Assembly (NCBI GenBank): GCA_046760505.1
Contig: JBHIEG010000009.1
Span: 8,021-72,020, forward strand
Source: CAYFZR01 sp046760505 [NCBI: Candidatus Hydrothermarchaeota archaeon]
GTDB lineage: Archaea; CAYFZR01
DNA: 64,000 nucleotides
Direction: 5' to 3'
Shown: positions 20,481 to 50,992 of the stretch, piece by piece
How the letters are laid out: each line of letters begins with the position of its first letter
How positions within the stretch are numbered: position 1 is the first letter of the stretch
Made by a program: the position numbers and the translations under genes
Notes under the pieces: model-generated
The model's input: only the letters and a program-made list of their open reading frames with translations
Databases searched by the model: none
Told to the model about the DNA's origin: nothing

Positions 20481-20497
20481 GTTCATATTTATTGAAC
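20481..20497. promoter_or_regulatory. Dyad over the TATA box of the thioredoxin-like gene
   Basis: GTTCATATTTATTGAAC is a 5-bp inverted repeat around an AT core that forms the minus-strand TATA box. A second symmetrical TATA, AAGTATTTATACTT (20514-20527), serves the rightward FwdG-like gene and lies about 27 bp before its predicted start. The two divergent groups could share a regulator. Confidence 0.45.
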
Positions 20498-20554
20498 AAT
20501 AGTGAATTAGGATAAGTATTTATACTTTCCCCCTTAGATAACTTTGTGATCTTT

Positions 20555-33674: not shown

Positions 33675-33726
33675 TGACCTCACCATTAATGTTGTCAAGT
33701 AAGTTGTTTACAATAGAAAGGTTTAT

Positions 33727-37871: not shown

Positions 37872-39059
37872 TTGGCTGTTGAATTGAAGAAGGGAGTCTA
37901 CTGGGTAGGTGCCATAGACTGGAATATAAGGGATTTCCATGGATATTTAACTCCAAAAGGAACCACATACAACGCGTATCTTATTGTAGATGACAAAATA
38001 ACGCTTGTTGATACGGTAAGGCATGGATTCTTTGATGAAATGCTTAGGAGGATCAAAGAAATTGTTGATCCCAGAGAAATCGATTTTGTAGTTTCTAATC
38101 ATGTTGAAAAAGATCATTCAGGCTCTCTAATCGACATAATGAGATTGGCCAAAAATGCAGAAATTTATGCCACGAGAAAAGGGAAAGATGGCCTAATAAA
38201 ATACTACAAAAAAGATTGGCCTTTCAACATTGTTAAAACAGGAGACGAATTAGATATAGGCAAAAAAACCCTGATGTTCATCGAGGCGCCGATGTTGCAT
38301 TGGCCAGATAGTATGTTCACATACATAAAGGAGGATCATATTCTACTGCCAAACGATGCGTTTGGACAACATGTAGCGAGTCATCAAAGGTTTGATGATG
38401 AAGTAGACGTTATGGAAGACGCAGCCACCTATTATGCAAACATACTAATGCCTTTTGCTCCTATGATACTTAGGAAAATAGAAGAAGTGGTATATCTAGG
38501 AATCAAAATAGATATGATAGGACCAAGTCACGGGATAATATGGCGGAAGGAACCAGATAAAATAATCAAGGCATACGTTGATTGGAGCAAAGGAATCACA
38601 AGAGATAAGATCATAATCGTCTACGATACCATGTGGGGGAGCACAGAAAAAATAGCCAGATCAATCCTTCGAGGAATAAAAAGAGAAGGAATAGAGGCCA
38701 AATTGTTGAAGCTGAGAGAGAATCACAGGAGTTATGTTGTAAGAGAAGTTCTTGATTCTAAGGTAGTTTTGGTTGGCTCGCCAACAATTAACAATGGAAT
38801 TTTCCCTACGGTAGCAGATTTCATCACCTATCTTAAGGGCTTGAAACCCAAAAAGAAAATTGGAGCTTCTTTTGGTTCCTACGGCTGGGGAGGTGGCGCA
38901 TGTAATATTTTAAACAAAGAATTAAGAGAAATGGGTTTTGAAGTTTTAGATGCAAATCTAGAGTTTAAATACGCTCCGGATGAAAGTGAATTGCAGAAAT
39001 GCGTTGATTTTGGAAGAGAACTTGTAAAAAAGATGAGCACTCATATACCCAGCAATTAA
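37872..39059 (+). CDS. fprA: F420H2:oxygen oxidoreductase / flavodiiron protein FprA
   Basis: 395 residues. Metallo-beta-lactamase diiron domain with ligands His77, Glu79, Asp81, His82 (NHVEKDHSG), His143, Asp162 and His220; flavodoxin domain from about 245 (IIVYDTMWGSTEKIA) with FMN loops GSPTINNGIFP and FGSYGWGGG. Such enzymes reduce O2 to water using F420H2 or rubredoxin. A rubredoxin, rubrerythrin and superoxide reductase follow. TTG 37872 has AGGAGGT six bases upstream. Confidence 0.93.
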   Translation: MAVELKKGVYWVGAIDWNIRDFHGYLTPKGTTYNAYLIVDDKITLVDTVRHGFFDEMLRRIKEIVDPREIDFVVSNHVEKDHSGSLIDIMRLAKNAEIYATRKGKDGLIKYYKKDWPFNIVKTGDELDIGKKTLMFIEAPMLHWPDSMFTYIKEDHILLPNDAFGQHVASHQRFDDEVDVMEDAATYYANILMPFAPMILRKIEEVVYLGIKIDMIGPSHGIIWRKEPDKIIKAYVDWSKGITRDKIIIVYDTMWGSTEKIARSILRGIKREGIEAKLLKLRENHRSYVVREVLDSKVVLVGSPTINNGIFPTVADFITYLKGLKPKKKIGASFGSYGWGGGACNILNKELREMGFEVLDANLEFKYAPDESELQKCVDFGRELVKKMSTHIPSN

Positions 39060-39127
39060 TAAACAATTTTGAAAGAACATTGAAGAGTTAAATACGAATT
39101 GAGGCGTATTGTGCAGTAAATATGACT

Positions 39128-39153
39128 AATTTCGTACAGAAATTTATATAAAT
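39128..39153 (+). promoter_or_regulatory. Dyad plus TATA box of the rubrerythrin operon
   Basis: AATTTC-GTACA-GAAATT (39128-39144) abuts the TATA box TTTATATAAATC. A second similar arrangement, ATTTATATGGAAATTCGTAT, follows at 39160-39180. The repeated GAAATT(CGTA) half-sites are candidate binding sites for a redox-responsive regulator. Confidence 0.5.
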
Positions 39154-39198
39154 CACAATAATTTATATGGAAATTCGTATAAATTTAGGGGGAATTGT

Positions 39199-39702
39199 AT
39201 GGAGAAAATCGAAGAAAAATTGCAAACCGCCTTTGCAGGAGAGAGCCAAGCAAACAGGAAGTATCTTGCATACTCAAAGAAAGCGGATGAAGAGGGCTAC
39301 AAGCAAATTGCAAGGTTATTCCGTGCAGTTGCAGCAGCAGAGACAATTCACGCGCATAACCATTTAAGAATAATGGGAGGCATCAAAACTACAGAAGAGA
39401 ATTTGAAGGCAGCGATAGAGGGCGAACACTACGAGTTTACGAAAATGTACCCAGAGTTTATAGAACAAGCAAATAAAGAGAGCAAAAAAAGAGCGGCTAG
39501 AAGTTTTGAGTGGGCAAACGAGGTAGAGAAAGTACATGGAGAGCTTTACTCCAAGTACCTCGAGAGGCTAAAGGCAGGCGAGAAATTTGAAGAGGAGGAC
39601 TTCTATGTTTGTGAGGTTTGTGGCTATACTGGAGAGGGAGAAACACCAGATAAATGCCCTGTATGCAGAGCTGTTAAAGAAAAATTTATGAAAATTGAAT
39701 AA
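39199..39702 (+). CDS. rbr: Rubrerythrin
   Basis: 167 residues. N-terminal four-helix diiron domain with E..N.KYLAYSKKADEEG, AAAETIHAHNH, ENLKAAIEGEHYEFTKMYPEF and EWANEVEKVHGELY; C-terminal rubredoxin domain with CEVCGYTGEGETPDKCPVC. Reduces H2O2 to water with electrons from rubredoxin. First gene of a peroxide/superoxide defence operon. Confidence 0.95.
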   Translation: MEKIEEKLQTAFAGESQANRKYLAYSKKADEEGYKQIARLFRAVAAAETIHAHNHLRIMGGIKTTEENLKAAIEGEHYEFTKMYPEFIEQANKESKKRAARSFEWANEVEKVHGELYSKYLERLKAGEKFEEEDFYVCEVCGYTGEGETPDKCPVCRAVKEKFMKIE

Positions 39703-39729
39703 TTTAGTGAAAATAGGATAGGGGTTTTT

Positions 39730-39894
39730 ATGGCAGAAAAATGGAGATGTACGATATGTGAATATGTCTATGATCCTGAAGAAGGGGATCCAGACGGCGG
39801 AATAGAAGCAGGCGTTAAATTCGAAGATTTACCAGGAGATTGGACCTGTCCTGTTTGTGGAGCATCAAAAGATATGTTTGAAAAAATCGAGTAA
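39730..39894 (+). CDS. Rubredoxin
   Basis: 54 residues, ATG 39730 to TAA 39894. Two CxxC knuckles, [20 protein letters not shown] and [17 protein letters not shown], with the usual acidic loops and PGTxFEDLPxDW-like KFEDLPGDW. One-electron carrier to rubrerythrin, FprA and superoxide reductase. It starts 28 bp after rbr. Confidence 0.95.
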
Positions 39895-39903
39895 GGTGAT
39901 AAA

Positions 39904-40281
39904 ATGGAAGAAAAATCTTGTGGAGAAAATCTCTTTTGTGGTTTGAATAAACCTGCGAATATAAAAAGTATGAGCGATTTGGAGAAAAAACATACTCCAG
40001 TAATCGAGTCACCATCTAGGGTAAAAAAAGAAGAAGTATTCGAGGTTAGCGTAGAGATTGGAAAACTCCTAAAGCATCCAAACGAAATAGGACATTTTAT
40101 CCAGTGGATAGAACTTTACTGTGGAGATACTTTTCTAACGAGAGTTGATTTAACTCCTGAATTTACTGAACCAAAGATTACTGTTCCAGTACGTTTAACT
40201 CATGCTCATCCATTGAGAGCGATAGGAAGATGCAACCTCCACGGTCTTTGGGAGAATACCAAAGAAATTAATGTAGAATAA
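39904..40281 (+). CDS. Superoxide reductase (neelaredoxin/desulfoferrodoxin type)
   Basis: 125 residues. Iron ligands of the SOR centre are visible: His30 (EKKHTPVIE), His58 and His64 (KHPNEIGHFIQWIELYCGDTF), Cys110 and His113 (GRCNLHGLWE). The CxxC of desulfoferrodoxin domain I is absent, though Cys6/Cys12 occur at the N-terminus. Reduces superoxide to peroxide, which rubrerythrin then removes. Nine bases after rubredoxin. Confidence 0.9.
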   Translation: MEEKSCGENLFCGLNKPANIKSMSDLEKKHTPVIESPSRVKKEEVFEVSVEIGKLLKHPNEIGHFIQWIELYCGDTFLTRVDLTPEFTEPKITVPVRLTHAHPLRAIGRCNLHGLWENTKEINVE

Positions 40282-40307
40282 TCTTGAGGAAATTCTAAGT
40301 GATTAGC

Positions 40308-40730
40308 ATGAAGATAAATAAGGAAAAATTAGTAGAGTTGCTCAACGATGATCTCTCGTGGGAATATACAGCGTTGGTACAGTATGTGCAACACAGTGGA
40401 GTCATGACAGGCGCAGAATATGGGGACATTGTGAAAGAGATTAAAATTCATGCTACCGAGGAACTTCAGCATGCCTTAATATTGGTGGACCAGATCGATT
40501 ATTTGGGGGGTACACCAACCGCCAAAGTATATCTTGCCAAAACATCACGGGATCCGAGGGAGATGTTGCAACAAGATTTAGATGGTGAAGAAGACGCAAT
40601 AAGAAGATATAGAGAAAGAATAGAGCAGGCAGAAGAGCTTAAAGAATTTGCATTGGCCCAAAAACTCCGTGAAATATTGACTATGGAACAGGAACACGCC
40701 ATGGATCTTAAATTTGCTTTGGGGAGGTAG
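40308..40730 (+). CDS. Ferritin-like diiron protein
   Basis: 140 residues, four-helix bundle with diiron motifs: DLSWEYTALVQYVQHSG, HATEELQHALILVDQI (ExxH), DGEEDAIRRYRERIEQA and LTMEQEHAMDLK (second ExxH). Length and motifs fit bacterioferritin-like or Dps-like iron storage proteins of anaerobes; heme ligand Met is not evident. Last gene of the oxygen-defence cluster. ATG 40308 has GTGAT four bases upstream. Confidence 0.8.
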   Translation: MKINKEKLVELLNDDLSWEYTALVQYVQHSGVMTGAEYGDIVKEIKIHATEELQHALILVDQIDYLGGTPTAKVYLAKTSRDPREMLQQDLDGEEDAIRRYRERIEQAEELKEFALAQKLREILTMEQEHAMDLKFALGR

Positions 40731-40805: not shown

Positions 40806-41630
40806 ATGGTGAAAGAGATTAAAATCCAAGATCCATTTGCTAGGTTAAAGAAGGTAATAACTTCTCCTCCTTTATACCTCAGACCAGAGCCTATAGATGA
40901 GATATCTAGCAAGTGGTCTAGGATAGGCGATTTTGATAAAAATTTGGCGTTGGAGCAATATGAGAACTTTGTTGATACATTGAAATCTGAGGGAGTGAAA
41001 GTTAAAATTTTAGAACCTTCTCCTGTAAAATGGAATCAAACATTTGTCAGAGACGTGGGATTTTCCTTAAAAAATGGAGTAATCATAGGAAGAATGAAAG
41101 AACATGGAAGAATGGGGGAGGAAGATCTTCTGATGAAGTTTTTAAAACTTATAGACATACCTGTAATCCATAGGGTAGAGAGGGGATTTTTGGAAGGCGG
41201 GGACATCCTTTTTATAAACGAGAAAGTATTCATTGGTCATGGGAACAGAACAGATCACGAGGGTATAAGAGAGATTAAAGATTTTTTAGGTGATTTGGAG
41301 ATAGATACCATTCATCTGAAGAAAGAATTTGTTCATTTGGATTTGGCTATGAATGTGGTAGATGATTCAACCATCTTGATGTTTCCAAACGCTTTTCATG
41401 CGGAAATTAAAATTTCTGACTGGAACACCATACTCGCAAGCGAAAAAGAATACCTTACTATTCCAGCAAATGTATTACTTCTTAGAGAAGGGAAGGTAAT
41501 AGCATCAGAGGAGAATCATCTTACAAATAAACTGCTGGAAAAAGAGGGAATAGATGTAGTTAGGGTAGAAATCAACGAAATTCTAAAAGCAGGTGGAGGT
41601 CCAAGGTGTCTAACCTTTCCAATATATTGA
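40806..41630 (+). CDS. DDAH/amidinotransferase-family hydrolase
   Basis: 274 residues, pentein fold. Catalytic-type residues are FVRDVGF, FLEGGDILF, IGHGNRTD, HLDLAMNVVDD (His/Asp) and the terminal GGGPRCLTFPI with the nucleophile Cys. These match dimethylarginine dimethylaminohydrolase-like proteins, which hydrolyse guanidines to ureido products; arginine deiminase-like or amidinotransferase activity is possible. Monocistronic. Confidence 0.8.
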   Translation: MVKEIKIQDPFARLKKVITSPPLYLRPEPIDEISSKWSRIGDFDKNLALEQYENFVDTLKSEGVKVKILEPSPVKWNQTFVRDVGFSLKNGVIIGRMKEHGRMGEEDLLMKFLKLIDIPVIHRVERGFLEGGDILFINEKVFIGHGNRTDHEGIREIKDFLGDLEIDTIHLKKEFVHLDLAMNVVDDSTILMFPNAFHAEIKISDWNTILASEKEYLTIPANVLLLREGKVIASEENHLTNKLLEKEGIDVVRVEINEILKAGGGPRCLTFPIY

Positions 41631-41736: not shown

Positions 41737-42150
41737 TTATATGAAGAGATTAATCTCTGAGTCTTTGGCGGTATTGATGTAGGTTCCGATACCTGCTACT
41801 TCTACATCATCGACGAAATCTTCTTTTTTAATACCCATTATCTCCATGGACATATCGCAAGCAATCATCTTTACACCAAGCTCTCTAAGATCATCAAACT
41901 GCTCTTGTAAGAGTGGAACATTTTTTTCTTTCATTTTCTTTTTCATAAATCTACTTCCAATGCCGAGATAATCTTTTTTTGAAAGAGTTATGTTTTTGAG
42001 TCCATCTTTCTTAATCGCTTCTAATCCCCAAAATGTAAAGAATATTGTTACGTCCATTCCGAATGAAGCCGCGCCATTTGCTATATTGAATGCGGCATAC
42101 ACTCTCTCAAAATCATTACTAGAACATATAATTGTAAGTTTTTTCGCCAT
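41737..42150 (-). CDS. DsrE-family sulfur-relay protein
   Basis: 137 residues, DsrE/DsrF-like fold: KKLTIICSSNDFERVYAAFNIANGAASFGMDVTIFFTFWGL, then a KKKMKEKNVPLLQE linker and GVKMIACDMSMEIMGIK. The Cys in ACDMSM is at the conserved persulfide-carrying position; Cys in IICSS is extra. Members exchange persulfide with TusA. Last of five leftward sulfur genes; starts immediately before the tusA stop. Confidence 0.85.
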   Translation of the reverse strand: MAKKLTIICSSNDFERVYAAFNIANGAASFGMDVTIFFTFWGLEAIKKDGLKNITLSKKDYLGIGSRFMKKKMKEKNVPLLQEQFDDLRELGVKMIACDMSMEIMGIKKEDFVDDVEVAGIGTYINTAKDSEINLFI

Positions 42151-42387
42151 TTACTCACCTGTTTTTTTAATTATGATCTTCCAACCACCTTCGGGAAGAT
42201 CTAATATTTCTAAGACGGTATTCCCGGATTCTTTCATTGCAAGGGGCAATTCTTTCCTAGAGATATCGTGATCTATTAGTATTTCAAGAATGTCGCCATG
42301 ATTCATCTTAATCAACTTCTTTCTTGCTTCTACAAGTGGTTTTGGGCACAAGAGTCCTTTTGCATCCACGAAAAATGTGTTGGGCAT
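42151..42387 (-). CDS. tusA: TusA-family sulfur carrier
   Basis: 78 residues with the defining DAKGLLCPKPLVEARKKL motif (CPxP, Cys14) and the beta-alpha fold NHGDILEILIDHD. TusA proteins carry sulfane sulfur as a Cys persulfide. Abuts the DsrE gene, supporting a carrier pair. Confidence 0.92.
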   Translation of the reverse strand: MPNTFFVDAKGLLCPKPLVEARKKLIKMNHGDILEILIDHDISRKELPLAMKESGNTVLEILDLPEGGWKIIIKKTGE

Positions 42388-42396
42388 GGAACCACA

Positions 42397-42834
42397 TTAA
42401 AACGTCAATATCAGATTGTGATTCTCTATTTCCTTTACGAGTTCTCTATTTTCTATGAGTTTTACTCCATCTATCAAATCTTCGATGGATAACCCCCTTT
42501 TCTCAAGGGAGGATTTCAATGCATACAGAGTTCCTTGCAATTCGAGGAAATCTGATATGATTTCTAGGTTATTTGGTAAATGTATATCCTCTGGATTTTG
42601 ATGTTTTACTGCGCAATATACTCCGTCGCCCATTAAGATTATGGTAGCTTTCTGTTGTTTTGCGATAGCGGCATTTCCCACGTATATGGAGCCAAGAACA
42701 TCATCGATGTATCCATATGTTCCATGCGTGATAAGTATAAGCAAAGAAGGTACATCTCTCGTGGGTGGCGCTATTTTATCCAAATCTATAGTGCTCAAAT
42801 CTGGCTCGCATTCATCACAATATTCTTCCTCCAT
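42397..42834 (-). CDS. DsrE-like protein with N-terminal CxxC extension
   Basis: 145 residues. The core (LLILITHGTYGYIDDVLGSIYVGNAAIAKQQKATIILMGDGVYCAVKHQNP) is DsrE/TusD-like with Cys in GVYCAVKHQ. A 30-residue N-terminal extension starts MEEEYCDECEPD, a CxxC that could bind metal or form a disulfide. ATG has GGTGAG three bases upstream. Confidence 0.8.
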   Translation of the reverse strand: MEEEYCDECEPDLSTIDLDKIAPPTRDVPSLLILITHGTYGYIDDVLGSIYVGNAAIAKQQKATIILMGDGVYCAVKHQNPEDIHLPNNLEIISDFLELQGTLYALKSSLEKRGLSIEDLIDGVKLIENRELVKEIENHNLILTF

Positions 42835-42838
42835 ACTC

Positions 42839-43426
42839 TCACCCCGGAAAACTAATGGATTGATGAGACTCTTTTAGCCAATATATGAGATCGTAAAGTC
42901 CTACAAGGGGCAAATCCCCAACGATCACATCTTGTGTGAGTCCTCTAGCCTCTGCACATCTGGCGCATACTTTAATGTTGACTCCTTTTTCTATCATCTT
43001 CTTGAAGTGTTCTTCGATGTTTGGAAAATTCTTTGGGTTTTGTTTTTTGTGGGGAGCCCATACACCATCTATGTAAAGATAGAGATTTACATTGTACCCT
43101 TTCTCCCTGGCTTTTAGGGCGAGATTTAGAGCCACATCTGTATATTCAGATATGTAAGGACCTCTATTTAGCACTACTGTTAAAGTTTTCGCTTTTTTCT
43201 TTAAATAGATCTTTATCGCTTCTTCCGATTTTTCAATTCCTAAAACTTCATGTTTTTGATCTTTCGCCCATTCAGATATGTTATCAGGTGCATCTGGGTC
43301 TGTAGTGATTATTTCTAAAATATCTCCATGATTTAGTTTTTCTATCTCGGTTTTTGTAATAACTAGAGGATAGGGACACTTCTTTCCTCTAACGTCTATC
43401 GAACGAGTAGGTTTTATTTCATCCAT
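42839..43426 (-). CDS. TusA-DsrE fusion protein
   Basis: 195 residues. N-terminal TusA domain (SIDVRGKKCPYPLVITKTEIEKL, CPYP) is joined to a DsrE domain from about residue 80 (LTVVLNRGPYISEYTDVALNLALKAREKGYNVNLYLYIDGVWAP) that ends with INIKVCARCAEARGLT-type NIKVCARCAEARG, two Cys near the active position. The fusion directly supports persulfide passage between TusA and DsrE. ATG 43426 has AGGTGA five bases upstream, better than GTG 43435. Confidence 0.87.
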   Translation of the reverse strand: MDEIKPTRSIDVRGKKCPYPLVITKTEIEKLNHGDILEIITTDPDAPDNISEWAKDQKHEVLGIEKSEEAIKIYLKKKAKTLTVVLNRGPYISEYTDVALNLALKAREKGYNVNLYLYIDGVWAPHKKQNPKNFPNIEEHFKKMIEKGVNIKVCARCAEARGLTQDVIVGDLPLVGLYDLIYWLKESHQSISFPG

Positions 43427-43435
43427 ATTCTTCAC

Positions 43436-44308
43436 CTAAAAGAGCAAAACCCTATCCCATTGCTCCATAATCAAATCAACTAGATCATCGTAGGGTCTTT
43501 CCGTAATTTTTATGTTCTCCATTAGCATTTCTTTAATTAAACCATTGGCTTTGAGATGTGGATCACTTGCTGTGATCTCTCCTCCTTTTTCCAGAAAGGT
43601 TTTAAGCAGAGGCTCAATCTGTGATCCCTTCTTTGCAGTCCAGACGCCATCACTTAGAAGAAAAATTTCTGCTCCATTTTCCTCTTTGAGTAAGTCAACC
43701 GCTAACATCAAAGCATTTTCTATATTCTCGTTATTAAAAGGAGGTTTTGTAATTATTATCCCAATTTTGTTCTTCTTCTTACCCAAAATCTCATCTATAA
43801 TCTCTATAACTTCCTCCGGAGATAAAACTCCTTCTATTGCTTTTCCATTGAAAATGGAAGTGGGTGCTTTGATTATTCCTCTCTTCTCAGCCTCAGGAGA
43901 TGGAAAAGAGAGTAACTTTACCGTGATGTTTTCTTTTTTATCGTAAATAGCCTCAAAAATGTTCTTAGTTAGTGTTTGGCATCTCTTTCCTGGAGGTACA
44001 TTTCTAAAGATCTCTATCAATATTCCTTTTTCTTCCAAGGCTTTTCTAACTTCCATTGCATGTTTTATTTTTTCTATGAGTTCTTCCTCGCTCGGTACGC
44101 CAACTATAACCAGTTTATTATCTATTGCTATGGATGGAGTTCGAGTGACACCATATCTTGCTGCTTTTATTTTTCCTTCTTCTTCGTCGGTGCTTATTTC
44201 CACGTATTCTACCTCTGGCATCTCACCTACTACTTTTTCTATGATTTCTTTTGCGTATGGACAATCGCGACATTTTGAGGCTGTGAACAACTCTAATAGA
44301 ACTTTCAT
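43436..44308 (-). CDS. Double thioredoxin-like plus DsrE fusion protein
   Basis: 290 residues. First redoxin domain (MKVLLELFTASKCRDCPYAK, CxxC) closely resembles the protein at 19807-20466, including TPSIAIDNKLVIVGVPS. A second redoxin-like unit follows (about 95-185; KGILIEIFRNVPPGKRCQTL, then IIKAPTSIFNGKAIEGVL) that has lost the CxxC. The last ~100 residues are a DsrE-like domain (KIGIIITKPPFNNENIENALMLAV ... FLLSDGVWTAKKG) lacking the usual Cys. It could reduce or receive persulfide on one chain. ATG 44308 has GGAG six bases upstream. First gene of the leftward operon. Confidence 0.82.
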   Translation of the reverse strand: MKVLLELFTASKCRDCPYAKEIIEKVVGEMPEVEYVEISTDEEEGKIKAARYGVTRTPSIAIDNKLVIVGVPSEEELIEKIKHAMEVRKALEEKGILIEIFRNVPPGKRCQTLTKNIFEAIYDKKENITVKLLSFPSPEAEKRGIIKAPTSIFNGKAIEGVLSPEEVIEIIDEILGKKKNKIGIIITKPPFNNENIENALMLAVDLLKEENGAEIFLLSDGVWTAKKGSQIEPLLKTFLEKGGEITASDPHLKANGLIKEMLMENIKITERPYDDLVDLIMEQWDRVLLF

Positions 44309-44373
44309 TTGTATCTCCATGGAAGCTGCTATTTTTCTATAATTTTACCTTATGAATCATATGCAAGCAACTA

Positions 44374-44403
44374 TAAATATTTTACCACCAATAAGTGGTG
44401 TTA
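44374..44403 (-). promoter_or_regulatory. Operator-promoter copy A (leftward sulfur operon)
   Basis: TACCACCAATAAGTGGT-type dyad (ACCAC-N6-GTGGT) fused to a minus-strand TATA box, AATATTTATAG. Its reverse complement matches copy B (44461-44490) at 26 of 30 positions, including the TATA box, so both divergent promoters carry the same operator at the same distance. Confidence 0.75.
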
Positions 44404-44460
44404 CTTTGAAATAAATAAATCCTAGAGATAGAGTGTAATAAGTCCAATAAATCTAAAATT

Positions 44461-44490
44461 TAACACCACTTTCCAGTGGTAAAATATTTA
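44461..44490 (+). promoter_or_regulatory. Operator-promoter copy B (rightward TrmB/sulfur operon)
   Basis: AACACCACTTTCCAGTGGTA dyad (ACCAC-N5/6-GTGGT) followed by AAAATATTTATATAA, the TATA box of the TrmB gene. Inverted copy of 44374-44403. The encoded TrmB regulator is the obvious candidate binder, giving coordinated control of both halves of the sulfur island. Confidence 0.75.
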
Positions 44491-44550
44491 TATAATTAGT
44501 AGGAGAATAGTACAAGCCTAGAGAAAGGTTAACAATCAACCGGTGGGAAA

Positions 44551-45294
44551 ATGGATATTGAAGAATCGTTAGTCCAGTTAGGTCTAAACAGATATGAGGT
44601 CAAGACCTATCTTGCAATACTAAAAAGTTCGGAGATATCTGCACCTTCAATAAGCAATATTTCTGGAGTTCCGTTTTCAAGGATATATGATACTCTTTCG
44701 AGTTTAGAAAGAATAGGTCTGGTAGAATGTAAGTTGCAAAGACCTAAACTCTATCGCGCAAGCGATCCAAGCATTGCCATTGAAAATTTACTCAAAAATT
44801 TGGAGAAGAAGCAGAAAAAAGAATTGGAATATAAGAGCCGAATTGCAAAGAAGATTCTTCCATCTTTGGTAGAAATTTACAACGAAAAATCTGAGGCGGA
44901 TGAAACAATATGGACGATTCGAGGAAATGAAAATGTTATGAAAAAGATTGATGAGATAGTTCCAAAGACAAGAGAAATTCTTAGAATTGCAGGAAAAAAA
45001 CCATTTTTCATGTTAGAATGTGGTGAGGTGGTTGAAAAGGCGGCTCTTAAGGGAGTCAAGATTAAGGCCATTGGAGAGTTCAATCCTGAGTGCATCGAAC
45101 TCCTTAATCGCATTCATGCTAAATACAAAGAGTTTCAATTCATGTATCAGTATCTCTTAATAGGAGATGAGAAGTTTGTACTTATCGTTGTCCACGATCA
45201 AAGTGGAATTCCTCTTGGAATATATAGTGAAAACGCTGATTTTGTCAAAGCAAATTTAGAACTGTTTGAGCGCATGTGGAAGGAGATAGAATAA
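44551..45294 (+). CDS. TrmB-family regulator of the sulfur island
   Basis: 247 residues. N-terminal TrmB winged helix (LGLNRYEVKTYLAILKSSEISAPSISNISGVPFSRIYDTLSSLERIGLV), a coiled coil (about 85-105) and a C-terminal sensor (TIWTIRGNENVMKKI ... LIVVHDQSGIPLGIYS) of the shortened TrmB type. A Cys in FMLECGEVVEK and another in FNPECIELL could make it thiol-responsive, which is speculation. It lies directly behind operator copy B. Confidence 0.87.
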   Translation: MDIEESLVQLGLNRYEVKTYLAILKSSEISAPSISNISGVPFSRIYDTLSSLERIGLVECKLQRPKLYRASDPSIAIENLLKNLEKKQKKELEYKSRIAKKILPSLVEIYNEKSEADETIWTIRGNENVMKKIDEIVPKTREILRIAGKKPFFMLECGEVVEKAALKGVKIKAIGEFNPECIELLNRIHAKYKEFQFMYQYLLIGDEKFVLIVVHDQSGIPLGIYSENADFVKANLELFERMWKEIE

Positions 45295-45384
45295 CATTGG
45301 CACACCTTTTTTAGGCTAAATCATACGAAAGTGATGGAAAGAAAAACTTTTTTCGTTATTTAACAAAATAATAGATGATTAGAT

Positions 45385-45465
45385 ATGATTGGAGAAGAAG
45401 TTGAAAAAACTGTTAGGGTTAGACTAAGGACTGTCGCCAATATCGATAAGGGGAATTTTCTATGA
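45385..45465 (+). CDS. Possible 26-residue leader ORF
   Basis: ATG 45385 to TGA 45465, peptide MIGEEVEKTVRVRLRTVANI plus DKGNFL. Its stop overlaps the ATG of the following fusion gene (ATGA), as true coupled genes do here. It has no clear SD of its own and no Cys, so it may be chance or a coupling leader. Confidence 0.3.
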   Translation: MIGEEVEKTVRVRLRTVANIDKGNFL

Positions 45466-47306
45466 ATGTTAAGGTCTATAGTTTATCCACTTGTCCTTAT
45501 TGTAGATTAGTAGAGAGTTTTTTGAACACTCATGGAGTAAAATATGAGAGAATAATGATAGACGAACTCAAGGGAGAGGAACAGAAAAAGGCAATCGCAG
45601 AGGCCTATCGTTTAAGCGGTCAGAGAAGCTTTCCTGTTACTCGTATAAACGAGAAAACAATTATCGGCTTCGACGAGTCAATGTTAACGAAGGCTTTAGG
45701 CCTTAAGGAAAAGGAAGTTGACCTATCAACACGAATAGATGAGGAAAAAAAGACAGATATCCAGCAATACTATGATCTCATAAGAAAAGATGCTGAGAAA
45801 ACCGGATACATCTTAAATCCAAATAGAGAATTTGTAGACATGATATTGTTGGGCCTTCTAGAAAATAGAGAACGCTATGGCTATGCCACCTGCCCCTGTA
45901 GATTGGCTAGCGGAAAAATAGAAGAGGACAATGAGATAATCTGTCCATGCACAAACAGAGATCTTTATCTCCAAAGATATGATCGTTGTCTCTGCGGACT
46001 TTATGTCACCGAGAATTACAACCCGTATGATCCCACGAGCCCTTTTTGCCTCGCAGAGTATCATGAAGAAATGCTAGAACACGATGTTTCTACTCCAACT
46101 TACGTTAAGGTATTTGGTTACTCTATGATGGGCGTTAACGAAGAAAGCATCAAAAATAACTTCAAACAGGTGGTAAGTTCATGTGAATTAAACCCGGAAT
46201 ATATAAGATGGAGAGAGAAGGATGCTTTAATTTCTAAAATCTTTGAAGATAGATACCGAGTAACTTTAAAAATGAATATCTCCAGAGATTTTTATACCTA
46301 TCAGGTGTGGGCAATCTCAGTGAAAGAATCGCCATCTGAAATATTCAATTTAATAGATCTCTTTGCCTCACTGGATTTCTCTTGGAATCACAATCAATTA
46401 TTTGCTTTAGATATCCTTTTGAATGAGAAGGATTTTTTCGATGAAAACCTAGATGATCTCCTACCAAAATCAGATAGGGTTGGAAGCAAACTCCGTGACG
46501 GTATTTGGATAATGACCAGCGACCAAGAAAAGAGGATAGGAAGGGAAAGATATATCGTCACTCCCATTCGAGGAGATATCGTTGAGGATATAATAACCAT
46601 AGAATCCAGTTATCACCTCTTAAATCTAGAGAAGCAAAAATATACTCTGATATCCGATCGTTTGAGTCGAATCGAGGATGAAACAGTATCTAAATTGGGA
46701 TCTATAAGCATAAGCCTACCCAAAGCAAGCCACGAACTCCTAAAGGACTGGATGCATGAAATTAGCAACAGTTTCTCTGAGATAGCAGGCATTACTGAGG
46801 AGGTGAACCACCACTATCTCGATGCAACATCACATAGAGATAGCTTAAAATCGATATTCGAAGAGTGGAATGAAAGTACCATAGACAATCTTCCATTGAT
46901 CTCATCTTCCATTCTAAGCAAGGTTAGGGATATCGAGAGAGATTACGAAAGACTGTACAATAGAATAGATGGCATACGCAAGGAAATGGAAGACACTATC
47001 AATATTTTAAGAACAAAAATAGATTTGATTCAACAGAAACAGAGTTTTGACCTCCAGAAAAGTATGCATGTTACTACACAGACACAACTGGATCTACAGA
47101 AAGCGGTCAAAGGAGTGTATGTATTTTTAGTGGCATTTTATTTCACTGAACTTGCAAGAATAGTTTTCGAGGCAATGGAAGCGAGAGGAATAATTCATAT
47201 TGCACCCTCCATACCAACTGCCTTGTTCATTCCGGTGGCGCTTTTTTTGGGATGGTTACTATCGATGAAGACAGAAAAATTGATCAGAAGGAAAAGGGAG
47301 CATTGA
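45462..47306 (+). CDS. Glutaredoxin / ferredoxin:thioredoxin reductase-like / membrane-anchored fusion
   Basis: 614 residues, three parts. 1-80: glutaredoxin with CPYC (11-14) and FPVTRINEKTIIGF. 100-200: ferredoxin:thioredoxin reductase catalytic-chain-like domain with CPC (144-146), CPC (161-163) and CLC (176-178); plant FTR has CPC-X16-CPC-X8-CHC, so spacing differs (X14, X12) and the His is Leu, but the [4Fe-4S]/redox-disulfide set is complete. 220-545: a DUF3422-like region with long coiled coils, ending in two membrane helices (about 547-569 and 578-601). Inferred role: electrons from ferredoxin pass via FTR to the glutaredoxin and then to thiols or persulfides at the membrane. Ferredoxin gene follows. 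I know no standard protein with this architecture. Confidence 0.8.
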   Translation: MNVKVYSLSTCPYCRLVESFLNTHGVKYERIMIDELKGEEQKKAIAEAYRLSGQRSFPVTRINEKTIIGFDESMLTKALGLKEKEVDLSTRIDEEKKTDIQQYYDLIRKDAEKTGYILNPNREFVDMILLGLLENRERYGYATCPCRLASGKIEEDNEIICPCTNRDLYLQRYDRCLCGLYVTENYNPYDPTSPFCLAEYHEEMLEHDVSTPTYVKVFGYSMMGVNEESIKNNFKQVVSSCELNPEYIRWREKDALISKIFEDRYRVTLKMNISRDFYTYQVWAISVKESPSEIFNLIDLFASLDFSWNHNQLFALDILLNEKDFFDENLDDLLPKSDRVGSKLRDGIWIMTSDQEKRIGRERYIVTPIRGDIVEDIITIESSYHLLNLEKQKYTLISDRLSRIEDETVSKLGSISISLPKASHELLKDWMHEISNSFSEIAGITEEVNHHYLDATSHRDSLKSIFEEWNESTIDNLPLISSSILSKVRDIERDYERLYNRIDGIRKEMEDTINILRTKIDLIQQKQSFDLQKSMHVTTQTQLDLQKAVKGVYVFLVAFYFTELARIVFEAMEARGIIHIAPSIPTALFIPVALFLGWLLSMKTEKLIRRKREH

Positions 47307-47377
47307 AAATGTTAGGCGCCATCTTTATATAGGTGTAAAAATTCTCCCCAATTATACAAAAAATTCGAGGTGATTGC

Positions 47378-47557
47378 ATGCCTCCAGTTGTAGATCATGA
47401 AAAATGCGATGGCGATGGAATTTGCGTGGATGTATGTCCAACTGAAGTATTTGAACTTGAAGAAGGAAAATCCATTGTTGCACGTCCAGAAGAATGTATA
47501 GAATGCGAAGTGTGCGTTGATGAATGCCCTCAAGGAGCGATAACCTTAGAAGAATGA
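47378..47557 (+). CDS. Two-cluster ferredoxin with Asp-ligated first cluster
   Basis: 59 residues. First site CDGDGICVDVCP lacks the second Cys and has Asp13, the same CxxDxxC arrangement as Pyrococcus furiosus ferredoxin; second site CIECEVCVDECP is complete. GAGGTGATTGC precedes ATG, and CTTTATATAGG at 47321-47331 is its TATA box. It is placed to reduce the FTR-like fusion upstream. Confidence 0.88.
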   Translation: MPPVVDHEKCDGDGICVDVCPTEVFELEEGKSIVARPEECIECEVCVDECPQGAITLEE

Positions 47558-47766
47558 AATTTGAAGGGATAATAAGCACAATAACCTGTTCGATGGACAG
47601 TTTTTAATTACTACTCATCCTTCCTTTCCTTAATGGATTCAGAAAATTACCTTTTTCACAAAAACCTAACATATCAGTTAGTGCTAGTGTTACGTAAGGT
47701 TAAGACAAAAAACTTTTAAAACATCTACGCAAACTATTTTCGAACAAATTTCCGAGAGAAAAGATA

Positions 47767-48009
47767 ATGAAAAGAAATTTAAAGCCAGATAGATCAATAG
47801 ATCTAATTGGATTATACTGTCCAGTTCCAATTCTTAAGACAAGGGAAGCATTAGATGAGATGAAGGTAGGGGAAATCCTAGAGGTTCTCGCCGATGACCC
47901 GGCTGCAGAAGAGGACTTAATTCGTTTCGCAAAAAGAACAGGACAAGAACTTCTTGAAATAAAAAAGGAAGATGAGATCATTCGTTTCCTCTTCAAGAAA
48001 GCAAAATAG
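47767..48009 (+). CDS. TusA-family sulfur carrier
   Basis: 80 residues with SIDLIGLYCPVPILKTREAL (CPVP, Cys18) and KVGEILEVLADDPAAEEDL. Second stand-alone TusA in the island. A TATA-like AACTTTTAAAAC (47711-47722) lies upstream in an otherwise empty 209-bp gap that also holds an imperfect AACCTAAC/GTAAGGTT dyad, so a separate transcript for the tusA-dsrE-iscSU set is likely. Confidence 0.9.
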   Translation: MKRNLKPDRSIDLIGLYCPVPILKTREALDEMKVGEILEVLADDPAAEEDLIRFAKRTGQELLEIKKEDEIIRFLFKKAK

Positions 48010-48030
48010 AATAAAAAGGAGTTGTTATTC

Positions 48031-48402
48031 ATGCCTGAACATAGAAAGAAAATAATGTATGTACAAACAAGTGGAGTAAATACTCCAGAAAGACTATATT
48101 CTCCATTTATACTGGCACAAACAGCCAAAACAATGGATATCGATGCCATTATTTATTTCCTAGGTATGGGAGTTACCGTTCTTAAGAAAGGAGAGGCTGA
48201 AAAAATAAAACTTGGCAGTTTTCCCAGTCTTAAAGAGGTGATAGACCAAACCATCAAAATGGGTATTGAGTTCTATGTATGTGAACAGAGTACTCAGCTT
48301 TTGAACATGGAGAGAGGAGATTTTATAGAGGGGACTAAGATAGTCGGAGCAGCCACCTTGAATGATCTTGTGTTGGAAGTAGATGGAGTAATGTGGTTTT
48401 AG
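48031..48402 (+). CDS. DsrE-family sulfur-relay protein
   Basis: 123 residues: KKIMYVQTSGVNTPERLYSPFILAQTAKTMDIDAIIYFLGMGVTVL and IEFYVCEQSTQLLNME, with Cys at the conserved persulfide position. ATG 48031 follows GGAG by nine bases. Between TusA and IscS, it probably passes sulfur from one to the other. Confidence 0.87.
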   Translation: MPEHRKKIMYVQTSGVNTPERLYSPFILAQTAKTMDIDAIIYFLGMGVTVLKKGEAEKIKLGSFPSLKEVIDQTIKMGIEFYVCEQSTQLLNMERGDFIEGTKIVGAATLNDLVLEVDGVMWF

Positions 48403-48416
48403 AGGGAAATGGAAAA

Positions 48417-49577
48417 ATGAAAAAAGTATACATGGACTATGCTGCATCTTCTCCAACGGATCCGCGTGTTATTGAAGCAATGATTCCGTACTACATCGAG
48501 AAGTATGGAAATCCATCATCAATATACTCATTTGCCCATGAAGACAAATTAGCGGTAGAAGAATCTAGAAAAAAGGTGGCAGAACTCATTGGAGCTAGAG
48601 ACGATGAGATTATCTTTACTTCAGGCGCAACTGAGAGTATTAACTTGGCTTTAAAGGGAGTAGCCTACAGAAATAAAGAGAAAGGAAACCATATCATTAC
48701 CTCAAAAATAGAGCATATTTCAGTTCTGAACACATGCAAGTATTTGCAGAGAGAAGGCTTCAAGGTCTCGTATATCCCGGTAGACGAATATGGAACGGTT
48801 GATGTGGAGAAGTTAAAGGAGGAGATATCAGATAAAACCATACTCATTTCTATCATGTATGCTAACAACGAGATAGGGACAATACAACCAATTAGGGAGA
48901 TAGGAGAGATAGCCAGTGACAAGGGAATTTATTTCCATGTTGACTCGGTTTCTTCCTTGGGGAAGGTACCAATAGATGTTGTAAGAGAGAATATAGATTT
49001 GTTATCGATGTCATCGAACGATATCTACGGTCCTAAAGGTAAAGGAGCCTTGTATATTAAAAAAGGAACTAAAATAGTTCCCATTTTACATGGGGGTGGA
49101 CAGGAACACGGTTTGAGATCCGGTACCGAAGACGTTCCAGGCATTGTTGGTATGGGTAAGGCTGCTGAAATTATGAAAGAAGAGATGGAAGAGGAGAGTA
49201 AAAGGCTGAAAAAATTGAGAGATATGATAATTAAAGGCGCCACTGAGAGCATAGACCATTGCTATCTAAATGGTCATCCAACAAATAGACTTCCAAACAA
49301 TGTAAATCTTAGGTTTAACTACATAGAAGGAGAGTCTTTAATTCTGAGCCTCGATATGTATGGAATTTATGCTTCTACAGGCTCTGCATGTACTTCGAAG
49401 ACTTTAGAGCCTTCTCACGTTCTTATTGGAATAGGATTGTCACATGAACTGGCACATGGATCGCTACAACTCACGCTTGGAAAATCGAATGATGAAGGGG
49501 ATGTCAAATATTTTTTAGAAGTTCTGCCAGAAGTAGTGAGCAAGTTAAGAGAACTGTCTCCATTAACACCGAGGTGA
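48417..49577 (+). CDS. iscS: IscS/NifS-type cysteine desulfurase homologue with Asp at the PLP-lysine position
   Basis: 386 residues. Family motifs are YMDYAASSPTDP, FTSGATESINLALK, HVDSVSS, HGGGQEHGLRSGTEDVPG and the mobile loop STGSACTSKTLEPSHVL with Cys325. However the PLP Schiff-base lysine (SxHKxxGPKG) is replaced: SMSSNDIYGPKGKGALYI has Asn201-Asp202. The same substitution (Asp199) is known in Archaeoglobus fulgidus IscS, which cannot act as a normal desulfurase but still binds IscU and cluster. Probably an assembly scaffold that uses external sulfide or TusA/DsrE persulfide. Linked to iscU by 4 bp. Confidence 0.9.
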   Translation: MKKVYMDYAASSPTDPRVIEAMIPYYIEKYGNPSSIYSFAHEDKLAVEESRKKVAELIGARDDEIIFTSGATESINLALKGVAYRNKEKGNHIITSKIEHISVLNTCKYLQREGFKVSYIPVDEYGTVDVEKLKEEISDKTILISIMYANNEIGTIQPIREIGEIASDKGIYFHVDSVSSLGKVPIDVVRENIDLLSMSSNDIYGPKGKGALYIKKGTKIVPILHGGGQEHGLRSGTEDVPGIVGMGKAAEIMKEEMEEESKRLKKLRDMIIKGATESIDHCYLNGHPTNRLPNNVNLRFNYIEGESLILSLDMYGIYASTGSACTSKTLEPSHVLIGIGLSHELAHGSLQLTLGKSNDEGDVKYFLEVLPEVVSKLRELSPLTPR

Positions 49578-49581
49578 TTTA

Positions 49582-49959
49582 ATGTATAGCGAAAAAGTGA
49601 TGGAACACTTCAGAAATCCTCGAAACGTAGGAGTAATTCCAGACGCGGATGGAGTAGGAACAGTGGGAAATCCCGTTTGTGGAGATCTCATGAGCGTCTA
49701 CATAAAAGTAGAGAATAATATTCTAAAAGACGTTAAATTCCAGACTTTTGGATGCGGCGCAGCAATAGCCACAAGCAGCATGATTACCGAATTAGCAAAA
49801 GGAAAAACCATAGATGAGGCGCTAAAAATCACAAAAAAAGATGTTGCAGAAGCTTTAGAAGGTTTACCCCCAGTAAAAATGCATTGTTCTAATCTTGCTG
49901 CAGATGCATTGCATGCTGCAATAGAAGATTATAAGAAGAAAAGATCTCAGGAGAGTTGA
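49582..49959 (+). CDS. iscU: Fe-S cluster scaffold IscU
   Basis: 125 residues. Cluster ligands Cys33 (NPVCGDLM, with Asp35), Cys58 (TFGCGAAIATSSM) and Cys102 (VKMHCSNLA) are all present, as is the N-terminal YSEKVMEHFRNPRNVG. Builds [2Fe-2S]/[4Fe-4S] clusters on the scaffold. The IscU LPPVK motif, recognised by Hsc-type chaperones, is also visible (GLPPVKM). Confidence 0.94.
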   Translation: MYSEKVMEHFRNPRNVGVIPDADGVGTVGNPVCGDLMSVYIKVENNILKDVKFQTFGCGAAIATSSMITELAKGKTIDEALKITKKDVAEALEGLPPVKMHCSNLAADALHAAIEDYKKKRSQES

Positions 49960-49963
49960 TAAG

Positions 49964-50113
49964 GTGGCTTGTGAATTTTGTAGTAAGGAAATCCTTCCAG
50001 AAGATTGTCTCTTCGCCCTACATAAGAAGATTATAGATGATAAGGAATACGTTTTTTGCTGCTCAATTTGTCTTGAAGCCTTTGAAAAGAAAGAAAAAGG
50101 GGTGAAAGAATGA
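49964..50113 (+). CDS. Small Cys-rich protein between iscU and nfu
   Basis: 49 residues, GTG start in AAGGTGG, stop overlapping the nfu ATG (ATGA). Cysteines at 3, 6, 15, 32, 33 and 36 (MACEFCSKEI, YVFCCSICLEAF) form two CxxC-like pairs, as in TRASH/zinc-ribbon metal-binding peptides. Its tight coupling to iscU and nfu suggests an Fe or cluster handling role. I do not recognise a named family. Confidence 0.6.
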   Translation: MACEFCSKEILPEDCLFALHKKIIDDKEYVFCCSICLEAFEKKEKGVKE

Positions 50114-50340
50114 AAGAAGAAGTAGAAAAAGTAATCAATGAATACATCAGACCAAGCCTCAAAGCAGACGGAGGAGACATAGAATTAGTCGATATAGACG
50201 AGAAAAACGATATCGTAAAGGTAAGATTGGTTGGAGCCTGTGCTGGCTGTCCAATGTCTCAATTTACTGCTCTTAATGTGGTAGAGAGTACACTGAAAAG
50301 GTTTGTTAAGGATACTATAATAGTGGAGACCGTTATTTAG
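50110..50340 (+). CDS. NifU C-terminal domain / Nfu-type Fe-S carrier
   Basis: 76 residues: VEKVINEYIRPSLKADGGDIELVDI and GACAGCPMSQFTALNVVE, with the CxxC that bridges a [4Fe-4S] cluster between two subunits. Delivers clusters from IscU to target proteins. Last gene of the rightward island. Confidence 0.92.
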   Translation: MKEEVEKVINEYIRPSLKADGGDIELVDIDEKNDIVKVRLVGACAGCPMSQFTALNVVESTLKRFVKDTIIVETVI

Positions 50341-50349: not shown

Positions 50350-50988
50350 TTACATCGGGTATCTGACATCGTAAAAAGGCTTTTCCAAGTCCTCAATTAT
50401 TTTAGAAGGTATATCCACGACTTTTTTAGACTTCTTAATCAAAACGTGATCGCTCGTTGCGATACATTCAAAACTCAAAAGGTCCCTATCACAATGTTTT
50501 GACGTGATTGCAGTGCCATTTAAACCTTTTTTCTCTATAAAATCTTTTACCTTGCTCGACAGTTCTCCGCTCTTTCTGACAGGACTATCAAAAACAAAAA
50601 CTACTTCTCTTGGAGGATAATGACTCAAGACATCTAAAATGAGATTCATTGCCTTCATTGTATATTCATTTATCCTATACTTTCCAAAAGAGGCTTCAAC
50701 GTCCCTTATGAATGAGTCATCGCATTTTATTAAAGGTCTATCCATTAGTATGCACTCCGTGGTGATCAAAACGTTATATCCATCGATCCCTAAATTTAAG
50801 TTCTCTAATTCATTCATTTTTATGCGCCTTTTGCAAAGCAATTCTGCCTCTTTCTTAGAAAATACAGCTCTAGCAAGAAGATTTCTTTCCTTCGGTGAAA
50901 GCATATGGTGATCTGAAACGAACTTTAGGGCGCTTTTCTTCTTGTAACCATGATTTAAAAGAAATCTAAGCTCATTGGCAGCTTTCAA
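50350..50988 (-). CDS. DUF434/DUF5616-type conserved archaeal protein
   Basis: About 212 residues. N-terminal part LRFLLNHGYKKKSALKFVSDHHMLSPKERNLLARAVFS resembles the archaeal DUF434 family; the following NLGIDGYNVLITTE and EVVFVFDSPVRKSGELSS with acidic residues is reminiscent of a PIN/NYN nuclease-like fold (IDGYNV), so an RNA-processing role is possible. TTG 50988 is the first codon after the leuS stop; longer frames overlap leuS and are unconserved-looking. Function unknown. Confidence 0.65.
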   Translation of the reverse strand: MKAANELRFLLNHGYKKKSALKFVSDHHMLSPKERNLLARAVFSKKEAELLCKRRIKMNELENLNLGIDGYNVLITTECILMDRPLIKCDDSFIRDVEASFGKYRINEYTMKAMNLILDVLSHYPPREVVFVFDSPVRKSGELSSKVKDFIEKKGLNGTAITSKHCDRDLLSFECIATSDHVLIKKSKKVVDIPSKIIEDLEKPFYDVRYPM

Positions 50989-50992
50989 TACT

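What the first reader, a model, noticed from the sequence alone, without database searches (positions are those of the whole stretch)
41737..50340. Divergent sulfur-trafficking and Fe-S assembly island under one duplicated operator
Fourteen or fifteen genes combine three TusA domains, four DsrE-type proteins or domains, redoxin fusions, an FTR-like membrane fusion, a Lys-less IscS, IscU, a Cys-rich peptide and Nfu. The two halves diverge from a region with two inverted 30-bp operator-TATA units (26 of 30 identical) beside a TrmB regulator. TusA/DsrE relays and Isc assembly are known separately; a co-regulated set with a glutaredoxin-FTR membrane protein is, to my knowledge, not described. Inferred job: take sulfane sulfur or sulfide, pass it along persulfide carriers and feed Fe-S assembly without cysteine desulfuration.
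Basis: partly seen in the sequence, partly recalled or inferred. Interest (0 to 1): 0.9.

Follow-up and report, generated by a model that had tools for sequence, protein, structure and literature searches.

The report
Sulfur-relay-fed iron-sulfur cluster assembly island
An uncultured archaeon carries a gene island that probably builds iron-sulfur clusters from sulfur handed over by carrier proteins instead of from cysteine, and its core (two sulfur carriers, a desulfurase that has lost its catalytic lysine, and the scaffold protein) recurs widely in archaea and anaerobic bacteria, including the organism whose 'dead' desulfurase was already crystallised.

Summary
The genes are there, with five DsrE-type domains rather than four. 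TusA and/or DsrE adjoin 46 of 50 such IscS copies but 1 of 41 lysine-type copies of the same genomes (33 genomes with both types: 30 to 0). The dead IscS is nearly one clade. Archaeoglobus fulgidus, whose desulfurase-dead IscS-IscU is solved (4EB5), has the same arrangement; my searches found no paper saying so. Oxygen-defence genes adjoin the window island and 17 of 50 relatives, against 0 of 41 controls; Grx with FTR recur in 4 of 50. Not found elsewhere so far: the DUF3422 membrane part on Grx-FTR, and the TusA-DsrE and Trx-DsrH fusions. The paired operator serves the divergent promoter only; common control of both arms is not shown. Best reading: persulfide carriers feed IscU, the dead IscS is docking or ligand partner, and ferredoxin via FTR/Grx supplies electrons. 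The chemistry is inferred.

The parts
37872..40730 (+). Oxygen-defence set: flavodiiron-type protein (ODP + flavodoxin, 37872-39059), rubrerythrin (39199-39702), rubredoxin (39730-39894), superoxide reductase (39904-40281), ferritin-like (40299-40730)
   Evidence: Pfam; families recur beside Asp-type IscS
41737..42150 (-). DsrE2-like (DrsE_2, PF13686 141 bits)
42151..42387 (-). TusA
   Evidence: CPKP motif
42397..42834 (-). DsrE/TusC-TusB-like protein
   Evidence: below NCBIfam equivalog cut-offs
42839..43426 (-). TusA-DsrE fusion with VCARC motif in the DsrE half
43436..44320 (-). Thioredoxin-type repeats fused to a DsrH-like domain
44372..44403 (.). Left operator unit (palindrome ACCACCAATAAGTGGT at 44384-44399) with a TATA-like stretch on its gene side
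   Evidence: its TATA-like stretch scored below my scan threshold on the minus strand
44461..44492 (.). Right operator unit (palindrome ACCACTTTCCAGTGGT at 44465-44480; TATA-like TTTATATA from 44487)
44551..45294 (+). TrmB-family regulator (HTH PF01978; no sugar-binding domain hit; three Cys)
45462..47306 (+). Grx (CPYC) - FTR beta (CPC/CPC/CLC) - DUF3422 membrane protein fusion
   Evidence: no full-length relative found
47378..47557 (+). Two-cluster ferredoxin
   Evidence: TATA-like box at 47324
47767..48009 (+). TusA of the conserved core
48031..48402 (+). DsrE of the conserved core (Cys84)
48417..49577 (+). IscS with catalytic Lys replaced by Asp (SSNDIYGPKG), loop Cys325 kept
49582..49959 (+). 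IscU scaffold (Cys33, 58, 102; CGD)
49964..50113 (+). TRASH-type Cys-rich peptide, 49 aa (GTG start)
   Evidence: beside 12 of 50 Asp-type and 0 of 41 Lys-type IscS
50110..50340 (+). Nfu (NifU C-terminal type)
   Evidence: not enriched beside Asp-type IscS (5 of 50 against 4 of 41)

Best explanation
The core tusA-dsrE-iscS-iscU (here also TRASH and nfu) is an iron-sulfur assembly unit that does not take sulfur from cysteine through its own IscS. Shown: IscS has lost the lysine that makes the Schiff base with PLP, as well as the neighbouring His and the Gln, but keeps the mobile-loop cysteine; TusA and DsrE with intact carrier cysteines are its regular neighbours; IscU is intact. Inferred: sulfane sulfur (from sulfide oxidation, polysulfide or another persulfide source) is loaded on DsrE and TusA; TusA or DsrE docks on the IscS-IscU complex and hands sulfur to the IscS loop cysteine and/or IscU; the loop cysteine serves as persulfide relay or cluster ligand; electrons that turn S0 into sulfide come from ferredoxin through the Grx-FTR protein (elsewhere perhaps from NAD(P)H through a flavoprotein-type domain fused to IscU). 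The left arm is a second carrier set of DsrEFH/TusBCD type, controlled at the TrmB promoter, that may load sulfur into the pool. The oxygen-defence neighbours suggest that the unit makes or remakes clusters when an anaerobe meets oxygen.
For: TusA and/or DsrE on the same strand within 1.5 kb: 46 of 50 Asp-type IscS, 1 of 41 Lys-type IscS of the same genomes; 33 genomes with both types, 30 discordant one way, 0 the other (the looser count with more distant relatives is 46 of 50 against 2 of 44, flanks 14.0 and 13.9 kb). Carrier cysteines: TusA CPxP 44 of 45, DsrE Cys 35 of 35, IscS loop Cys 51 of 51; Gln183 (E. coli numbering, recalled) is lost in 51 of 51 Asp-type and kept in 42 of 44 Lys-type copies, a change not fixed by my pattern. 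Nearly one clade in a tree with the motif masked. A. fulgidus IscS, reported to lack desulfurase activity and to ligate the cluster through a cysteine (passages of PMC7585200), has DsrE or TusA-DsrE directly before both its genes and no close lysine-type relative. Grx or FTR near 5 of 50 against 0 of 44. Oxygen-defence genes 17 of 50 against 0 of 41, paired 14 to 0.
Against: No biochemistry. In E. coli sulfur flows the other way, from IscS to TusA (passage of PMC9769115). Four of 50 Asp-type loci have neither carrier gene adjacent. 33 of the 50 genomes also hold a lysine-type IscS, so cysteine-derived sulfur could still reach the carriers. A figure legend shows the A. fulgidus complex with PLP as well as a cluster, so some PLP chemistry is not excluded. 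His-to-Asn and Lys-to-Asp were fixed by my search pattern. FTR enrichment alone is not significant (Fisher p 0.058). Nfu and ferredoxin are not enriched (5 and 8 of 50 against 4 and 9 of 41). No link between a left-arm-type cluster and an Isc operon was seen elsewhere.
Confidence: 0.6

Rival explanations
1. Two independent neighbours: a DsrEFH/TusBCD-like sulfur relay (left arm) for tRNA thiolation, cofactor synthesis or sulfur energy metabolism, controlled at the TrmB promoter, and a separate Isc module (right arm) that merely lie side by side.
For: Operators only at the divergent promoter; left-arm-type DsrE and TusA genes sit close together in other places of some of the 50 genomes, such as ANME-2d.
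Against: The right arm has its own conserved TusA-DsrE pair, so a sulfur relay is part of the Isc module in any case.
Confidence: 0.4
2. The module detoxifies excess sulfide or polysulfide, or mends oxygen-damaged clusters, with the dead IscS as sulfur sink or storage partner, rather than making clusters de novo.
For: Oxygen-defence neighbours in the window and in 17 of 50 loci; FUR, AhpC/TSA and Prismane genes in L191.
Against: 17 of 50 genomes show no lysine-type IscS at E 1e-55 (two of them have an Arg-type copy); 15 of the 17 searched deeper show only distant class V aminotransferases of at most 114 bits, so the module may be their only Isc machine. These are mostly draft genomes, and SufBC/SmsBC was not checked.
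Confidence: 0.25
3. TusA and DsrE are clients: a lysine-type desulfurase elsewhere, or free sulfide, loads IscU, and the carriers take sulfur out for tRNA or cofactor thiolation.
For: Known direction in E. coli (passage); 33 of 50 genomes also have a lysine-type IscS.
Against: A dead IscS cannot load TusA from cysteine; carriers avoid the lysine-type copies in the same genomes (30 to 0).
Confidence: 0.15

Closest known systems
Archaeoglobus fulgidus desulfurase-dead IscS-IscU (PDB 4EB5, 4EB7, 4HVK; 4R5F reads SSNKIYG at the motif)
   Same: Best PDB match of the window IscS (477 bits); identical SSNDIYGPKG motif; loop Cys; IscU next door; DsrE or TusA-DsrE directly upstream in its genome
   Different: The accounts I could see (passages) treat IscS-IscU alone; the window adds Nfu, TRASH peptide, Grx-FTR-DUF3422 and a second carrier arm
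ISC and the minimal MIS system
   Same: IscS-fold protein + IscU scaffold
   Different: [quoted passage not shown] here the desulfurase lysine is gone and carriers are added
SMS (SmsBC/SufBC) sulfide-fed assembly in methanogens
   Same: Cluster assembly without cysteine desulfurase, sulfide as source (passages of PMC12192291)
   Different: Unrelated scaffold; the words TusA and DsrE do not occur in that paper's main text
TusBCD / DsrEFH sulfur relays with TusA
   Same: Left-arm domain types; carrier cysteines in TusA and in the DsrE half of the fusion
   Different: Scores lie below the TusB, TusC and TusD equivalog cut-offs; fused to TusA and to thioredoxin domains
FTR / FtrB with neighbouring or fused glutaredoxin
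   Same: FTR beta cysteines. Grx and FTR are neighbouring genes beside Asp-type IscS in L164, L168, L191, L200; one Grx-FTR single frame of 201 aa exists in another genome (L128)
   Different: DUF3422 membrane part added in the window protein

Membership tests
Cysteine desulfurase IscS/NifS (ISC, MIS) | PLP-binding lysine in S-x-H-K | tested here: not met
   D202 in place of Lys, although the NifS model scores 545.2 over its cut-off 530.75
Cysteine desulfurase IscS/NifS (ISC, MIS) | Mobile-loop catalytic cysteine | tested here: met
   Cys325; 51 of 51 Asp-type copies, window included
A. fulgidus-type dead IscS | Asp at the lysine position, loop Cys kept, IscU next door | tested here: met
   A. 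fulgidus itself was not a row of the tree
A. fulgidus-type dead IscS | No desulfurase activity; Cys ligates the cluster | not testable with these tools
   reported for A. fulgidus, seen as passages of PMC7585200
IscU / NifU_N scaffold | Three cluster cysteines and CGD aspartate | tested here: met
   Cys33, 58, 102; PF01592 175 bits
TusA | CPxP carrier motif | tested here: met
   all three window domains
DsrEFH / TusBCD complex | DsrE, DsrF and DsrH subunits over curated equivalog cut-offs | tested here: not met
   hits, but all under NCBIfam cut-offs; Pfam DsrE or DsrH cut-offs are met
Ferredoxin:thioredoxin reductase, catalytic chain | Six cysteines in three CxC pairs | tested here: met
   Cys144/146, 161/163, 176/178; PF02943 71 bits
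TrmB sugar-responsive regulator | HTH plus C-terminal sugar-binding domain | tested here: inconclusive
   HTH met (68 bits); no sugar-binding family hit at E 0.05
DUF3422 | Score over Pfam cut-off | tested here: met
   61.2 bits, cut-off 25, profile 71-411 of 418

The most novel reading that the evidence does not exclude
TusA-DsrE-IscS(Asp)-IscU is a separate class of iron-sulfur assembly machine, old and shared by archaea and anaerobic bacteria, that takes sulfur from persulfide carriers instead of cysteine and is used against oxygen; in the window lineage it is driven by a membrane-anchored, ferredoxin-powered Grx-FTR-DUF3422 protein that reduces persulfides and gives DUF3422 a first suggested role.
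Probability: 0.4. Interest if true: 0.88.

Novelty: new variant of a known kind. Interest (0 to 1): 0.74.

Why it matters
How anaerobes feed sulfur to cluster assembly without a cysteine desulfurase is an open question: A. fulgidus has a dead IscS in its solved complex, and Methanococcus is said to use sulfide through factors still unknown (passages of PMC7585200). A conserved partner pair, TusA and DsrE, beside exactly the dead IscS and not beside the live one makes that question directly testable, in a system with solved structures. The oxygen-defence neighbourhood suggests when the unit is used.

Tried and rejected
Rejected or without yield: (1) The window's own genome is not held; the Grx-FTR protein found no relative in the collection scan; AlaS places the window as a lone branch beside Halobacteriota and Thermoplasmata rows, support 87/88 (20 other rows). 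(2) A CorA-like reading of DUF3422 from its two C-terminal hydrophobic segments: the single-sequence model is useless (pLDDT 40) and no PDB chain matches (best E 0.23). (3) Plasmid tblastn: 125 records, Rhizobium and others, 20-24% identity in the rows shown, mostly annotated DUF3422; their architecture was not inspected. No held paper has the word DUF3422. (4) The full Grx-FTR-DUF3422 protein: in 294, 28, 194 and 23 genomes (phyla of Methanoperedens, a Hadesarchaeon, a Thermoplasmatota MAG and BMS3Abin16) no listed match runs past query residue 252; the match list is cut and only the best candidates per genome were scored. DUF3422 family query: 0 of 398 (phylum of a Bathyarchaeon) and 0 of 9. 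(5) Left-arm fusions in 50 genomes: no listed match spans TusA-DsrE without a stop, and none spans Trx-DsrH. (6) TrmB: 0 of 50 Asp-type, 1 of 41 Lys-type neighbourhoods (profile from few sequences); 2 of 118 loci.

Limits of the counts: I picked the 50 genomes out of 118 loci for long contigs and spread, after seeing the TusA/DsrE hits; over all 118 often truncated loci 87 show TusA or DsrE. Copies with Arg (2) or Asn (1) at the lysine position were left out of the tables. One search counts 44 Lys-type copies because it holds four more distant relatives and lacks one partial copy; one search mends this to the 41 lysine-type places and asks for 60% profile coverage for neighbours within 8.5 kb, which removes cross-hits such as rubredoxin tails of FTR proteins counted. 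Genomes are related, so p-values are rough.
Full report
What is in the window. Left arm, minus strand: DsrE2-like 41737-42150, TusA 42151-42387, DsrE/TusC-like 42397-42834, TusA-DsrE fusion 42839-43426, Thioredoxin_3-DsrH fusion 43436-44320. Right arm, plus strand: TrmB 44551-45294, Grx-FTR-DUF3422 45462-47306, ferredoxin 47378-47557, then a tight run TusA 47767-48009, DsrE 48031-48402, IscS 48417-49577, IscU 49582-49959, TRASH peptide 49964-50113, Nfu 50110-50340. There are five DsrE-type domains, one more than stated. The C-terminal part of the FTR protein matches DUF3422 (PF11902) at 61 bits over a cut-off of 25. To the left, ending tail to tail with the left arm across a DDAH-type gene, lie an ODP-flavodoxin flavodiiron protein, rubrerythrin, rubredoxin, superoxide reductase and a ferritin-like protein.

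The operator. Two exact ACCAC-N6-GTGGT palindromes lie at 44384 and 44465, in 32-nt arms that are 88% complementary. They are the only copies in 64 kb, also with one mismatch; 9 of 100 shuffles give two or more, so the case rests on their place and pairing. Each arm carries a TATA-like stretch on its gene side; in my scan the right one scores 8 of 8 and the left one, read on the minus strand, falls below the threshold of 7. No copy lies before grx-ftr, ferredoxin (TATA-like TTTATATA at 47324) or tusA (209-bp gap). The sequence supports joint control of the left arm and trmB, and says nothing for control of the Isc operon. That TrmB is the binder is inference from adjacency.

The IscS has no lysine, and that is known in one organism. 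The nearest solved chain is A. fulgidus IscS (4EB5, 477 bits), with the same SSNDIYGPKG. Passages of PMC7585200 report that A. fulgidus IscS lacks desulfurase activity because an aspartate replaces the lysine, that it gives a cysteine ligand to the cluster on IscU, and that M. acetivorans IscS1 lacks the lysine too. The primary papers were seen only as entries of that reference list.

The module is widespread. Their record titles name Bathyarchaeota, ANME-2 and Methanoperedens, Thermoplasmata, Methanomassiliicoccales, Hadesarchaea, Thaumarchaeota and Asgard groups, and in bacteria Deltaproteobacteria, WOR-3, Aminicenantes, Stahlbacteria, Eisenbacteria and Aerophobetes. All 118 match IscS; 78 show TusA, 58 DsrE, 87 either, 88 IscU and 24 TRASH within the DNA held, which is often cut (maps).

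The control. In 50 of these genomes I searched for IscS relatives at E 1e-55 (94 places) and fetched up to about 8.5 kb on each side of all of them in 93 stretches. With profiles seeded from the window, TusA and/or DsrE lie on the same strand within 1.5 kb of 46 of 50 Asp-type copies and 1 of 41 Lys-type copies. In the 33 genomes with both types, 30 are discordant in the expected direction, none in the other, 2 have carriers at neither and 1 at both (sign test 1.9e-9). A first count that also held four more distant lysine-type relatives gave 46 of 50 against 2 of 44, with mean flanks of 14.0 and 13.9 kb. IscU is adjacent in 43 of 50 against 19 of 41; TRASH lies near 12 against 0; Nfu 5 against 4; ferredoxin 8 against 9. 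Asp-type loci without adjacent carriers: L152, L174, L184, L201; Lys-type locus with one: L230.

Residues. In 51 Asp-type copies (window included) the loop Cys and the Asp under the PLP ring are kept in 51, and the Gln that contacts PLP (E. coli 183, recalled) is lost in 51, against kept in 42 of 44 Lys-type copies. His-to-Asn and Lys-to-Asp were fixed by the search pattern and prove nothing by themselves. Neighbouring TusA has CPxP in 44 of 45, DsrE its Cys in 35 of 35. With the motif masked, the Asp-type copies form almost one clade (51 Asp rows and one long-branched Asn row, SH-aLRT 94) nested among lysine types.

Archaeoglobus fulgidus. A search with its IscS sequence in 392 genomes of the phylum of Methanoperedens gave one 100% match, taken as A. 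fulgidus. Both its IscS genes are SND; one is directly preceded by DsrE (TusA about 5.9 kb upstream), the other by TusA-DsrE. Of 20 regions fetched (20 of the best 24 places), 20 are SND, 18 have TusA adjacent and 10 DsrE. L310 also has rubrerythrin, superoxide reductase, FTR and Grx within about 4 kb upstream. A. fulgidus showed no other relative above 48 bits. 17 of the 50 genomes hold no lysine-type IscS at E 1e-55, two of them with an Arg-type copy; 15 of the 17, searched deeper, show only relatives of at most 114 bits.

Redox partners and oxygen defence. Grx with FTR lie near 4 of 50 Asp-type copies (FTR alone near a fifth) and near no Lys-type copy; the FTR difference alone gives p 0.058. 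In L164, L168, L191 and L200 they are neighbouring genes. By open-frame length, 22 of 44 IscU beside Asp-type IscS run on for more than 100 aa past the IscU domain (18 frames of 252-347 aa, 4 of 461-474 aa). Of five scanned, L161 carries a full pyridine nucleotide-disulfide oxidoreductase (150 bits), three carry short, mostly sub-threshold pieces of that fold, and one (L196) a weak zinc-ribbon-like tail. With 60% profile coverage asked for, at least one of flavodiiron, rubrerythrin, rubredoxin, superoxide reductase and ferritin-like genes lies near 17 of 50 Asp-type and 0 of 41 Lys-type copies (Fisher 1.3e-5; paired 14 to 0, p 1.2e-4; two or more in 9 of 50). The window has all five. L191 adds FUR, AhpC/TSA and Prismane, L200 three more rubrerythrin-family genes.

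How it most likely works. Passages of PMC9769115 state that four electrons are needed to turn two S0 into sulfide for one [2Fe-2S] and that ferredoxin likely supplies reducing equivalents in the isc system. A review (PMC11763069: abstract and passages) gives Trx and Grx systems a role in reducing persulfides. Put together: carriers DsrE and TusA bring sulfane sulfur to a dead IscS that still docks IscU and still has its loop cysteine; ferredoxin, FTR and Grx bring electrons; TRASH may bring metal (a guess from the family). The DUF3422 part would place the reductase at the membrane. Each transfer step is inference.

What is new. Searches for TusA/DsrE with IscS/IscU in archaea or with Archaeoglobus listed no paper that, by title and abstract start or by the passages I opened, describes this operon; of the two papers I opened passages of one (PMC9769115) and not the other (PMC5176006). 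TusA and DsrE do not occur in the main text of PMC7585200 or PMC12192291. The 2022 paper that defined MIS is not held, so a mention there, or in other subscription papers, cannot be excluded. I rate it a new variant of a known kind: an ISC-like machine whose desulfurase has become a partner of sulfur carriers. A Grx-FTR fusion without DUF3422 exists elsewhere (L128); the DUF3422 addition and the left-arm fusions were not seen outside the window in the samples searched.

Noticed in passing
L227 and L231 (genomes G560, G568 of Lokiarchaeota and Thorarchaeota MAGs): IscS copies with Arg in place of the PLP lysine (AHRIHGPKG) next to IscU; a second way of losing the lysine.
   Followed up: no
L161, L156, L172, L157: IscU beside Asp-type IscS runs on into a long C-terminal region (461-474 aa frames); L161 was confirmed as a full Pyr_redox_2 flavoprotein domain.
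   Followed up: partly
L128 (genome G051): A 201-aa Grx-FTR fusion in one frame, without DUF3422.
   Followed up: partly
window 40806-41630: Arginine deiminase/DDAH-type gene between the oxygen-defence set and the left arm.
   Followed up: no
window 32856-33698: A second TrmB-type regulator (PF01978 67.9 bits); the ACCAC-N6-GTGGT operator is not found near it.
   Followed up: no
window 19807-20754: Another Thioredoxin_3 protein with a CPYC motif, similar by eye to the N-terminal part of 43436-44320.
   Followed up: no
window 50350-51075: DUF434 + DUF5616 protein directly after Nfu on the opposite strand.
   Followed up: no
L314 4408-8006: Lysine-type IscS (AHK) divergent from a TusA-DsrE-IscS(Asp)-IscU run, a natural pair for comparison.
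   Followed up: no
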